NCBI RefSeq assembly: GCF_029945705.1
Contig: NZ_JAQSDC010000009.1
Span: 1 to 47,236 of the forward strand
Direction: 5' to 3'
DNA length: 47,236 nucleotides
From: Methylotenera sp.
Lineage (GTDB): Bacteria; Pseudomonadota; Gammaproteobacteria; Burkholderiales; Methylophilaceae
Shown here piece after piece: positions 13 through 3,279 of this stretch (the stretch's first letter is position 1; every line of letters begins with the position of its first letter). The notes under the pieces were generated by a model. It saw only the letters and a program-made list of their open reading frames with translations, was not told the origin of the DNA and made no database searches. A program made the translations under genes and the position numbers.

Positions 13-128
13 GCCATCCTTATAACATTTTATGTGTTATCTAGGACAGCCCCAAATATTTTAATAAAAATAAATTTTATTATTAATTATCAAATAGTTA
101 AATAAATTTATAGTCAATTATAAAAAAG

Positions 129-145
129 TTGGCATTGTAGTTGCT
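129..145 (+). promoter_or_regulatory. Sigma-54 (-24/-12) promoter of the tRNA-rtcB-slipin operon
   Basis: The sequence TTGGCATTGTAGTTGCT has GG at 131-132 and GC at 143-144, separated by exactly 10 bases as sigma-54 requires, and closely matches the consensus YTGGCAC-N5-TTGCW. Transcription would start near position 156, about 5 nt before the tRNA at 161. The AT-rich stretch 60-125 upstream contains an inverted repeat (AATAAAA/TTTTATT) that could hold activator sites. RtcR-type regulators activate rtcB operons through sigma-54, which agrees with this promoter class. Confidence 0.75.
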
Positions 146-160
146 AATTACTATGCAATA

Positions 161-237
161 CCGAATGTAGCGTAGCTTGGTAACGCCCTTGTTTTGGGAG
201 CAAGAGATCGTGGGTTCAAATCCTTCCATTCGGACCA
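161..237 (+). tRNA. tRNA-Pro(UGG), leader element of the rtcB operon
   Basis: A full cloverleaf is visible: acceptor CCGAATG/CATTCGG (7 bp, C1-G72), D stem GCGT/ACGC, anticodon stem CTTGT/GCAAG with a T-G closing pair, loop TTTGGGA giving anticodon TGG, T loop TTCAAAT and an encoded ACCA end. G72, A73 and anticodon G35-G36 are proline identity features. The T stem GTGGG/CCTTC holds one T-T mismatch and one G-T pair, which is unusual. It lies between a sigma-54 promoter and rtcB, so at least part of its expression would be under stress control. It may be a working tRNA or a nearly perfect tRNA serving the repair locus. Confidence 0.8.
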
Positions 238-1633: not shown

Positions 1634-1712
1634 GTGGCTATAGCTCAGTCTGGTAGAGCAACGGATATACAACATCCGTGCGTCGTTGGTTCGAATCCAG
1701 CTAGCCGCACCA
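1634..1712 (+). ncRNA. tRNA-like RNA 1 (extended anticodon arm, encoded CCA)
   Basis: Cloverleaf with acceptor GTGGCTA/TAGCCGC (7 bp, one T-G), D stem GCTC/GAGC with GG in the loop, T arm GTTGG-TTCGAAT-CCAGC and an encoded ACCA end. The anticodon arm departs from normal: ACGGAT/ATCCGT gives 6 bp closing the 7-nt loop ATACAAC. Read by position the anticodon would be ACA, which bacteria do not use for cysteine. Taken as a 5-bp stem the loop would be 9 nt. The body is well kept, so CCA maturation or modifying enzymes could recognise it, but decoding looks unlikely. It fits the tRNA-like RNA class reported beside SPFH/RtcB repair genes. A diverged real tRNA is the alternative. Confidence 0.75.
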
Positions 1713-1715
1713 ACT

Positions 1716-1788
1716 CACTGTAGCTCAGTTTGGTAGAGCCTCGGGGAAACCCGATTGTCGGTGGTTCGAATCCACCCGTGAAATCACC
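1716..1788 (+). ncRNA. tRNA-like RNA 2 with GAAA tetraloop instead of anticodon loop
   Basis: The D arm (GCTC-AGTTTGGTA-GAGC) and T arm (GGTGG-TTCGAAT-CCACC) are canonical, with U8-A9 before the D stem. The anticodon arm is TCGGG-GAAA-CCCGA (1741-1754): a perfect 5-bp stem capped by a GNRA tetraloop, so there is no anticodon. The acceptor is poor if closed on itself (TCAC-T-G with CGTGA, one bulge), and no CCA follows. The 5' strand CACTG (1716-1720) pairs better with CAGTG at 1841-1845, the end of the next tRNA-like unit, suggesting a composite RNA. The intact D and T loops argue for selection on the tRNA elbow without translation. Confidence 0.65.
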
Positions 1789-1791
1789 CTT

Positions 1792-1848
1792 ACACGGTGC
1801 TTTAAATGGTAAGCCGCAAGGCCTCGGTTCAAATCCGATTCAGTGTTA
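1792..1848 (+). ncRNA. tRNA-like RNA 3 with minimal GCAA-capped arm
   Basis: D arm GCTT-TAAATGGT-AAGC (1799-1814) and T arm CTCGG-TTCAAAT-CCGAT (1823-1839) flank a tiny hairpin GCC-GCAA-GGC (1813-1822) where the anticodon arm should be. It shares two bases with the D stem, so the two helices compete or stack. ACAC (1792-1795) can pair with GTGT (1843-1846), but CACGG (1793-1797) pairs fully with CCGTG (1776-1780) of RNA 2. No CCA is encoded. It is about 57 nt, too short for a normal tRNA. It could equally be a decaying tRNA relic. Confidence 0.5.
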
Positions 1849-1854
1849 AAAATG

Positions 1855-1980
1855 TAGTAAACGGTACGCCCCATTGGCGTTGCGTGGCTAAAAGTGACGA
1901 GGATATTGCTAGCTGTTTTAGCAATTCATCGAAGTGATTGGTCTCACAACACCACCTTGATGTTAAACAGTATTGTGGTG
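1855..1980 (+). other. Structured RNA segment of unknown role, 5' of the slipin gene
   Basis: No gene is seen here, but helices nest: ACGCC-CCATT-GGCGT (1866-1880); then GTGG 1884-1887 with CCAC 1952-1955, GTGA 1894-1897 with TCAC 1944-1947, CGAgGA 1898-1903 with TCaTCG 1926-1931, and ATTGCTA 1905-1911 with TAGCAAT 1919-1925 around a 7-nt loop. CACCAC 1950-1955 can instead pair with GTGGTG 1975-1980, an exclusive alternative. It may be a further noncoding RNA or a leader controlling the slipin. From 1981 to 2118 nothing clear is seen apart from a GC-alternating run near 2018-2025. Confidence 0.4.
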
Positions 1981-2118
1981 AAAATAGTCTTACAAATCTA
2001 TTCAAACCTATGCTTTGCGCGCGCGTTTGTCAGTTAAATGCAACCCCAAGACATAAAAATAATATTGCTTAACGGCAAGTGGGGCAAACCACTTTTATTG
2101 ATAAGAATGGATAATAAT

Positions 2119-3279
2119 ATGTTTAGAAAAAAAGTAGTGATTGAAGAAAATCAACGAGGTTTATTGTTTAAAGAACAACAATTTGAACGCGTTTTGGATA
2201 AAGGCGTATATCACTTTTGGGACTTTAGAAAGCAATACACTGTAAAAATCGTATCTGCAAATGGCGCGGCTAGAGAAATTGTGGCTGAAGATTTGCTCAT
2301 GCTAGCTGAAGCCAATTCGAGCAAATTTACCCCTTACTTAGACACTTGGGAAACAGAGGTAGAAGAGATTGGTTTGGTGTATGAAGCCAATAAATTGATG
2401 GATATTAAGCTGCCAAACCAACGAGGTGCGTTTTGGAAAGGTGTACGTGCAACGCATGTTAAAAAGGTAAACATTAGCACATCATTTAAAATTGATGAGC
2501 GTACAGCAGCCTTAATGCTAGGGGCAGAAAGCGAAAAGCTTCGTAAAGCCGCAGGAAACGCAATTTATACGGTGACCGTACCCGAAGGCTATGTGAGCTT
2601 TTTAGATGTGAATGGTCAAGTAACTGAAACATTACACACAGGTACTTATGCATGGTGGAAATTTAGCCGTGTGTTAAAAACCAAGCTGTACGACATGCGT
2701 TTGCAAAATATGGAAATCAATGGTCAAGAAATTTTGACCAAAGATAAAGTCAGTTTACGCATTAACTTATCTGCAACTTGGCAGATTGCCGATGCAGAGA
2801 AAGTGCGCTTAAACTTAGCTGACCACACAGATTTTTTATATCGTGAAATGCAATTAGCCTTGCGCACAGTGGTTTCTACCCAAACGTTAGACCAATTATT
2901 GCAAGATAAAAACTTGCTTAATTTACAAGTGCAGCAAATTGTAGCAGGCAAAGCTTTAGAGTACGGCATTACGGTTAAATCTGTAGGCGCTCGCGATATT
3001 GTGTTGCCAGGTGAAATGAAAACCATTTTGGCACAAGTGGTTGAGGCTGAAAAATTAGCCGAAGCCAATGTCATTCGTCGCCGTGAAGAAACACAAGCTA
3101 CCCGTAGCTTGCACAACACAGCTAAAGTGATGGAAGGCAACCCAATTTTGTTACGATTAAAAGAATTGGAAAGTTTAGAGAAAATCACGGGGCAGATTAA
3201 ATCGCTCAATGTGTATGGCGGCTTACAAGGAGTAATGAATGATATGGTTAAACTGACTGACCGTACTAAAATTAACTAA
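2119..3279 (+). CDS. Slipin / SPFH (band-7) family protein of the RtcB locus
   Basis: SPFH proteins oligomerise on membranes as scaffolds; those beside RtcB have been proposed as cofactors that hold tRNA-like RNAs during RNA repair. The protein is about 386 aa from the ATG at 2119 (GGA 7 nt upstream); 2107 is another possible start, and the open frame reaches 2038. Two similar N-terminal beta segments occur, one beginning VVIEENQRGLLF and one YTVTVPEGYVSFLD about 155 residues later, followed by the SPFH core (SLRINLSATWQI), an alpha-helical stretch with VVEAEKLAEANVIRRREE and a C-terminal segment ending in NDMVKLTDRTKIN. No clear transmembrane helix is visible. It is the last gene of the operon before a strong terminator. 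Confidence 0.85.
   Translation: MFRKKVVIEENQRGLLFKEQQFERVLDKGVYHFWDFRKQYTVKIVSANGAAREIVAEDLLMLAEANSSKFTPYLDTWETEVEEIGLVYEANKLMDIKLPNQRGAFWKGVRATHVKKVNISTSFKIDERTAALMLGAESEKLRKAAGNAIYTVTVPEGYVSFLDVNGQVTETLHTGTYAWWKFSRVLKTKLYDMRLQNMEINGQEILTKDKVSLRINLSATWQIADAEKVRLNLADHTDFLYREMQLALRTVVSTQTLDQLLQDKNLLNLQVQQIVAGKALEYGITVKSVGARDIVLPGEMKTILAQVVEAEKLAEANVIRRREETQATRSLHNTAKVMEGNPILLRLKELESLEKITGQIKSLNVYGGLQGVMNDMVKLTDRTKIN

What the first reader, a model, noticed from the sequence alone, without database searches (positions are those of the whole stretch)
1716..1754. Anticodon loop replaced by a GAAA tetraloop
Between a canonical D arm and T arm, the anticodon arm is TCGGG-GAAA-CCCGA. A GNRA cap on a perfect stem removes any anticodon while keeping the tRNA elbow. 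This would give a tRNA mimic that cannot decode and resists anticodon nucleases, or that docks on a receptor through the tetraloop.
Basis: seen in the sequence. Interest (0 to 1): 0.85.

Follow-up and report, generated by a model that had tools for sequence, protein, structure and literature searches.

The report
Anticodon-less tRNA mimic beside RNA ligase
Between an RNA-repair ligase gene and a membrane-protein gene this bacterium carries a row of tRNA look-alikes, one of which has its anticodon replaced by a tiny stable cap; related rows occur in other bacteria and are probably decoys or regulators in the response to damaged RNA rather than working tRNAs.

Summary
The GAAA-capped arm (1741-1754) is the anticodon arm of a tRNA-like unit (1714-1783), the weakest of 44 tRNA matches in its genome. 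It is unit 2 of three between rtcB and a slipin gene, in a genome with RtcR and behind a sigma54-like box. In 70 of 80 related loci similar units lie just upstream of slipin, mostly behind a leader RNA with strong covariation that no Rfam family matches over cut-off in the window and 13 loci scanned. D and T arms are kept while anticodon arms drift in length, U33 and position 34. The GAAA cap itself is lineage-specific, but GNRA caps recur elsewhere (4 of 12 unique four-base loops) and cap 25 of 51 T-arm-only units, the kind to which unit 3 belongs. Unit 2 is 70/70 identical to a relative whose flanking genes are 76-81% identical, so it is not decaying. Best reading: a non-decoding tRNA mimic of an RNA-repair operon, working like YrlA but not a member of it. 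Nuclease resistance and tetraloop docking were not tested.

The parts
130..145 (+). sigma54-type promoter box TGGCAT-N5-TTGCT
   Evidence: Only match of TGGCAYNNNNNTTGCW in the window, both strands (0.27 expected; 23 of 100 shuffles have one or more). With a looser pattern a box lies 20-500 bases upstream of rtcB in 18 of 42 sequences with a + strand rtcB start in view, this one included
161..237 (+). tRNA-Pro (TGG), first gene behind the box, diverged from two other tRNA-Pro(TGG) copies in the genome
260..1501 (+). rtcB, RNA 3'-phosphate ligase
   Evidence: PF01139, 439.9 bits
1532..1628 (+). domain A: leader RNA, three-way junction
   Evidence: Fold z -5.04 for 1502-1633; model R1 75.9 bits, the window being a training sequence; covariation
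1634..1712 (+). tRNA-like unit 1: 7/7 acceptor pairs, encoded CCA, odd anticodon loop (called tRNA-Cys ACA)
1714..1783 (+). tRNA-like unit 2, the unit of the finding
   Evidence: RF00005 36.2 bits; 70/70 identical to G131
1741..1754 (+). anticodon arm TCGGG-GAAA-CCCGA
1785..1846 (+). unit 3: hairpin (1785-1799), then a D-armless mini tRNA-like with GG (1808-1809) and T arm
   Evidence: alignment A4; not found by cmscan at E<=5
1813..1822 (+). GNRA hairpin GCC-GCAA-GGC of unit 3
1847..2118 (+). 3' region up to the slipin start; fold not established here
   Evidence: 1853-1990 folds with z -1.34; a region in the same place aligns among 12 other loci
2119..3279 (+). slipin (SPFH/Band_7 protein, 386 aa)
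   Evidence: PF01145 93.1 bits; start taken from the 386-aa cluster P0001

Best explanation
The GAAA arm belongs to the second of three tRNA-like units transcribed, most likely from an RtcR/sigma54 promoter, as part of an RNA-repair operon (tRNA-Pro, rtcB, domain A, units 1-3, slipin). The units are non-decoding tRNA mimics: they keep the parts that make the tRNA elbow (D-loop GG and T loop) and, in part, an acceptor stem, while the anticodon arm is free to shrink to a stable hairpin. When tRNAs are being cut and RtcR is switched on, the units would be made in quantity and occupy proteins that grip the tRNA elbow, as decoys or scaffolds that a cutting enzyme cannot inactivate. Shown: anatomy, conservation, leader covariation, linkage to slipin and to RtcB/RtcR, relaxed decoding features. 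Inferred: expression, promoter use, and the decoy or scaffold role; the bound protein is unknown.
For: Unit 2 is the weakest of 44 tRNA matches in its genome (36.2 bits; next 48.3). D+T units in 73 of 83 sequences. Domain A at E<=0.001 in 71 of 81 sources, 44 of which trained the model, so in 27 of 37 untrained loci, some close to trained ones; covariation score 0.609 against 0.236 shuffled and at most 0.128 slid. Whole genomes: 17 of 369 in the class (15 of 272 genera) and 3 of 187 in the family; slipin is in view downstream in 41 of 44 fetched stretches, some of them the same place twice. Relaxed decoding: ARAGORN calls within 620 bases upstream of slipin have U before the anticodon in 58 of 90 and A at its first place in 32 of 90 (5 of these 32 of undetermined type), against 97 and 7 of 104 elsewhere in the same loci (p 5e-7, relatedness not corrected for). 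GNRA in 4 of 12 unique four-base loops. RtcR lies in 36 of 80 loci and in this genome. 70/70 identity of unit 2 to G131.
Against: No expression or binding data. 69 of 121 unique units have a 7-base loop, 49 of them with U33 and 17 with CAT, so some members may decode. The units lie upstream of slipin, which also fits a cis-acting leader. Domain A is missed at E<=0.001 in 10 of 81 sources, among them L107, one of the four GNRA examples; L183, another, has no slipin match in view. No protein partner is identified; no Ro60 match in the genome.
Confidence: 0.55

Rival explanations
1. Cis-acting leader: domain A, the tRNA-like units and the 3' region form the structured 5' region of the slipin message, sensing an elbow-binding protein or tRNA state, or serving as RNase P/Z cutting sites that separate slipin mRNA from rtcB mRNA.
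For: The array keeps its place upstream of slipin whether rtcB lies upstream, downstream or out of view; slipin is in view downstream in 41 of 44 stretches.
Against: Does not by itself explain the CCA ends encoded in some first units or the large normal tRNA arrays in some loci; in L103 three domain A copies precede tRNA-like units and only the last is next to slipin.
Confidence: 0.25
2. Working replacement tRNAs made under stress, as in the Anabaena trn operon; unit 2 is a degenerate member.
For: Normal tRNA arrays sit in several of these loci (L059, L068, L070, L084, L090); the operon here starts with a tRNA-Pro; 69 of 121 unique units have 7-base loops, 49 with U33.
Against: Unit 2 here has no anticodon. 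U33 and A34 counts in the zone differ from those of tRNAs elsewhere in the same loci, and the anticodon changes between corresponding units of related loci.
Confidence: 0.12
3. Decaying tRNA genes without function.
For: Poor acceptor stem of unit 2; in genome G472 units 1 and 2 appear fused by recombination.
Against: 70/70 identity to G131 against 76-81% for the flanking genes; a two-sided change in the arm; recurrence behind a covarying leader in 15 of 272 genera sampled in the class.
Confidence: 0.04
4. The tetraloop docks into a receptor elsewhere in one large RNA, so the units are tertiary-contact modules of a single long non-coding RNA. This does not exclude the other readings, so the odds need not add to one.
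For: GNRA recurs in unrelated units and caps 25 of 51 T-arm-only units by script.
Against: No receptor was searched for; YNCG caps (5 of 51), which do not dock like GNRA (recalled), also occur on such units; most full units are not GNRA-capped.
Confidence: 0.1

Closest known systems
YrlA / bacterial Y RNAs of rsr-yrlBA-rtcBA operons (Rfam RF02553)
   Same: Non-coding tRNA mimics with D- and T-arm likeness in RtcR-controlled rtcB operons; Hughes et al. suggest that YrlA may competitively inhibit an anticodon nuclease (PMC7790460, passages seen).
   Different: YrlA is one RNA closed by a long Rsr-binding stem (PMC8394870, passages seen), with T arm before D arm (Rfam model). Here the units have ordinary arm order, are tandem, have no Ro60 in the genome and sit behind a different leader. 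The YrlA model scores 32.8 bits against a cut-off of 69, over the junction of units 1 and 2.
Stress-induced trn array and RtcB of Anabaena (PMC10272220, passages seen)
   Same: A tRNA operon, rtcB and a slipin gene are all held down by one repressor, TrcR.
   Different: There the tRNA genes form a separate operon on a plasmid; here the units lie physically between rtcB and slipin, and unit 2 has no anticodon.
RtcR/sigma54 rtcBA operon of E. coli and Salmonella
   Same: RtcR, sigma54-like box and rtcB.
   Different: No RtcA match in this genome; slipin and the tRNA-like array instead.
tRNA (RF00005)
   Same: Over the gathering score; D and T arms.
   Different: No anticodon loop and an imperfect acceptor stem.

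Membership tests
tRNA (RF00005) | Score over Rfam gathering cut-off | tested here: met
   36.2 against 29 bits
tRNA (RF00005) | 7-base anticodon loop with U33 | tested here: not met
   4-base GAAA loop
tRNA (RF00005) | 7-bp acceptor stem with CCA or room for it | tested here: not met
   3 of 7 pairs in the standard register; 3' side GTGAAATCACC, no CCA in place
YrlA (RF02553) | Score over gathering cut-off | tested here: not met
   32.8 against 69 bits; sub-threshold hits of 28.2-36 bits at tandem units in 3 of 6 loci scanned, L032, L047, L103; 19.1 at close tandem tRNAs in L068; none at E<=0.01 in more widely spaced own tRNAs
YrlA (RF02553) | Ro60/Rsr (TROVE) partner in the genome | tested here: not met
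   PF05731: no match in the held assembly
YrlA (RF02553) | Located in an rtcB operon | tested here: met
   rtcB directly upstream; co-transcription not tested
RtcR-controlled RNA repair operon | RtcR in the genome, divergent next to rtcB | tested here: inconclusive
   RtcR is present and starts 121 bases from a contig end that shares a repeat with the window start; adjacency here not seen; in relatives RtcR lies upstream on the other strand
RtcR-controlled RNA repair operon | sigma54 promoter before the operon | tested here: met
   Sequence match only; use of the promoter not tested
RtcR-controlled RNA repair operon | RtcA cyclase | tested here: not met
   PF01137: no match in the held assembly
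Stress tRNA array (Anabaena trn type) | Functional, chargeable tRNAs | not testable with these tools
   Needs charging assays; unit 2 has no anticodon

The most novel reading that the evidence does not exclude
An undescribed RNA system of RNA-repair operons: a covarying three-way-junction leader plus a row of elbow-only tRNA mimics, including D-armless mini-tRNAs often capped by GNRA loops, that acts in trans on the tRNA-damage response together with slipin. Read across the junction of two units, the order T arm then D arm resembles YrlA, so tandem arrays like this may be where permuted Y RNAs came from.
Probability: 0.35. Interest if true: 0.87.

Novelty: new variant of a known kind. Interest (0 to 1): 0.7.

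Why it matters
The tRNA mimic of rtc operons met in the papers seen here is YrlA, with Ro60. A second, Ro60-free design that keeps the elbow and discards the anticodon would show which part of tRNA matters to the repair response, give a natural set of anticodon-less tRNAs for testing anticodon nucleases, RtcR and elbow-binding proteins, and offer a handle on slipin in RNA repair. The leader RNA is a defined, searchable family that no Rfam 15 model matched over its cut-off in the window and 13 loci scanned.

Tried and rejected
Conserved GNRA cap at this unit: rejected; the cap is lineage-specific. Pseudogene: disfavoured by the 70/70 identity. YrlA membership: rejected on score and Ro60. Mini unit by RNAalifold on A4: only the T stem was recovered; MAFFT appears to shift the capped hairpin, so the cap statement rests on per-sequence parsing, where 25 of 51 T-arm-only units were GNRA, 5 YNCG and 21 other or none. 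15 of the 51 were then set aside by eye as misparsed, elsewhere in the array or hard to align; of the 36 left, 24 are GNRA and 3 YNCG in the list, and 29 of the 36 were aligned. Domain A: 46 of 55 candidate sequences were aligned. Whole-stretch DNA search in the order gave matches in 191 of 300 genomes, nearly all of those listed being short pieces of ordinary tRNA likeness; only G472 and G580 besides the own genome were looked at as arrays. Energy z-score for unit 2 is weak. The 1/244 value for the 3' region against G131 is an end-gap artefact and is not used. The first RtcR query took a wrong ORF and gave 0 loci; one search replaced it. Literature: searches listed no paper whose title or abstract describes this array; passages of PMC9650030 mention tRNA-like only for tmRNA and in a reference. 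Burroughs & Aravind 2016 and Chen et al. 2014 are not held, so a prior mention there cannot be excluded.

Full report
Observation. The bases TCGGG-GAAA-CCCGA lie at 1741-1754, between a D arm at 1723-1739 and a T arm at 1760-1776. The unit 1714-1783 passes Rfam's tRNA cut-off (36.2 against 29 bits), is missed by ARAGORN, and is the lowest-scoring of 44 tRNA matches in the genome, the next being 48.3. Energy alone is unremarkable (z -1.60).

Surroundings. Upstream lies tRNA-like unit 1 (1634-1712), with a full acceptor stem, encoded CCA and an odd anticodon loop. Downstream lies unit 3 (1785-1846), which cmscan does not find at E<=5: a hairpin, then GG, a GCC-GCAA-GGC hairpin and a T arm with no D arm. 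Before unit 1 is a separate folded leader, domain A (z -5.04 for 1502-1633). The array sits between rtcB and slipin. A sigma54-like box at 130-145 precedes a tRNA-Pro and rtcB (0.27 matches expected in the whole window, 23 of 100 shuffles with one or more). With a looser pattern, boxes lie 20-500 bases before rtcB in 18 of 42 sequences with a + strand rtcB start in view, the window included; over all 83 sequences 31 boxes were seen on the + strand against 3.65 in mononucleotide shuffles. In three loci with no rtcB in view upstream (L036, L041, L046) a box lies 451-518 bases before slipin, just upstream of the leader. RtcR is encoded in the genome, starting 121 bases from a contig end that shares a repeat with the window start. 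No RtcA or Ro60 match was found in the held assembly.

Relatives. An rtcB match is in view in 48 of these 80 (51 of 83 sequences including the window, L002 and L003) and RtcR in 36 of 80. Units with D and T arms were found in 73 of 83 sequences (97 units; 70 of the 80 loci), and T-arm-only units in 49 of 83 (51 units). Loop slot lengths among the 97: 7 in 57, 6 in 16, 5 in 9, 4 in 5, 9 in 4, 8 in 2, other in 4. Adding stretches from whole-genome searches gives 155 units, 121 of them unique, in 112 loci of which some are the same place.

Leader RNA. 46 of 55 candidate domain A sequences were aligned and fold into a three-way junction; 14 of 20 pairs change on both sides in at least one sequence. 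The model R1 built from them matches 71 of 81 sources at E<=0.001; 44 of the 71 trained the model, so 27 of 37 untrained loci match, some of them close to trained ones. The ten misses are L045, L057, L063, L082 (E 0.03), L089, L093, L100, L107, L108 and L110. On 75 aligned matches, one of them a probable chance hit at window 26509 (16.1 bits), 92.5% of cells pair, 15 of 20 pairs change on both sides, and the covariation score is 0.609 against 0.236 shuffled and at most 0.128 when slid. That alignment was fitted to the structure, which leans towards it. In whole genomes R1 is found in 17 of 369 of the class, 3 of 187 of the family, 21 of 63 of the order of G223 (whose array equals that of the Thiothrix locus L055) and 5 of 398 of the phylum, all five in this class (samples overlap, the window's genome is counted in all but the third, and strict filters lose weak matches). 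Of 44 fetched stretches, some the same place twice, 41 show slipin and 39 show D+T units. Stretches cut by contig ends are among the misses.

Anticodon arm. Within Methylophilaceae two genomes have GAAA and the third GGAAA, with an outer-pair U-A to A-U change. Elsewhere the arm varies widely. Among the 121 unique units, 12 have a perfect stem of at least 5 pairs closing exactly four bases, and 4 of these are GNRA: the window, L107, L157 and L183. The chance of four or more is 0.0004 at 1/32 each, or 0.0002 by loop composition; this test was chosen after seeing the data and ignores relatedness, though the four loci come from different genomes. L107 has no R1 match and L183 no slipin match in view. 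L041 has GCAA on three pairs. Among the 51 T-arm-only units the script scores 25 GNRA and 5 YNCG caps. ARAGORN calls starting in the 620 bases before slipin have U before the anticodon in 58 of 90, A at its first place in 32 of 90 (5 of them of undetermined type) and an undetermined type in 16 of 90; calls elsewhere in the same loci give 97, 7 and 3 of 104. Against this reading, 69 of 121 unique units have 7-base loops, 49 of them with U33, and CAT is the commonest anticodon (17 of 69), so parts of the family may still decode.

Constraint. Unit 2 is 70/70 identical to G131, while the pieces of rtcB and slipin compared are 81% and 76% identical; against G143 it is 63/71, and unit 1 is 65/76 against both. 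This speaks against simple decay in this lineage.

Comparison. The YrlA model hits the junction of units 1 and 2 below its cut-off (32.8 against 69 bits), as it does at tandem units in 3 of 6 loci scanned, L032, L047 and L103 (28.2-36 bits). Close tandem tRNAs in L068 give 19.1, and more widely spaced own tRNAs none at E<=0.01. The hit follows from T arm then D arm across tandem units. YrlA membership is not met. Functionally the array is closest to YrlA: passages of PMC7790460 say that tRNA fragments activate the RtcR-controlled operon and suggest that YrlA may competitively inhibit the nuclease. Passages of PMC8394870 describe YrlA's tRNA-like domain, its modification enzymes and its Rsr/PNPase partners. 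Passages of PMC10272220 show rtcB, a slipin gene and a tRNA operon under one repressor in Anabaena. Rfam scans at gathering cut-offs found only tRNA in the window, and only tRNA and one FMN riboswitch (L110) in 13 loci.

Verdict. The non-decoding mimic reading is supported; the conserved-GNRA reading is not, and nuclease resistance and docking are untested. Most likely a trans-acting tRNA mimic of an RNA-repair operon; the main rival is a cis-acting slipin leader.

Noticed in passing
window 38-60: GTTATCTAGGACAGCCCCAAATA recurs in reverse complement near the end of contig C20, just beyond rtcR: probably the two ends of one mobile element between rtcR and this operon.
   Followed up: partly
window 161-237: A third, diverged tRNA-Pro(TGG) lies between the sigma54-like box and rtcB; two other copies of this tRNA are elsewhere in the genome.
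   Followed up: partly
L139 / L156 (genome G472): One tRNA-like unit seems to join the 5' half of unit 1 to the T arm of unit 2, as if by recombination between tandem units.
   Followed up: no
L103 2409-2515, 2951-3056, 3495-3602: Three copies of the domain A leader, each directly followed by tRNA-like units, in one contig titled Beggiatoa.
   Followed up: no
L059, L068, L070, L084, L090: Arrays of normal tRNA genes share the locus with slipin and rtcB; RtcR is also in view in L059 and L068.
   Followed up: no
L002 (genome G131): The slipin match has an in-frame TAG although unit 2 upstream is identical to the window's.
   Followed up: no
L013 (genome G035): A 37-residue slipin match at 81% identity, perhaps a remnant, in a family member without the leader match.
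   Followed up: no
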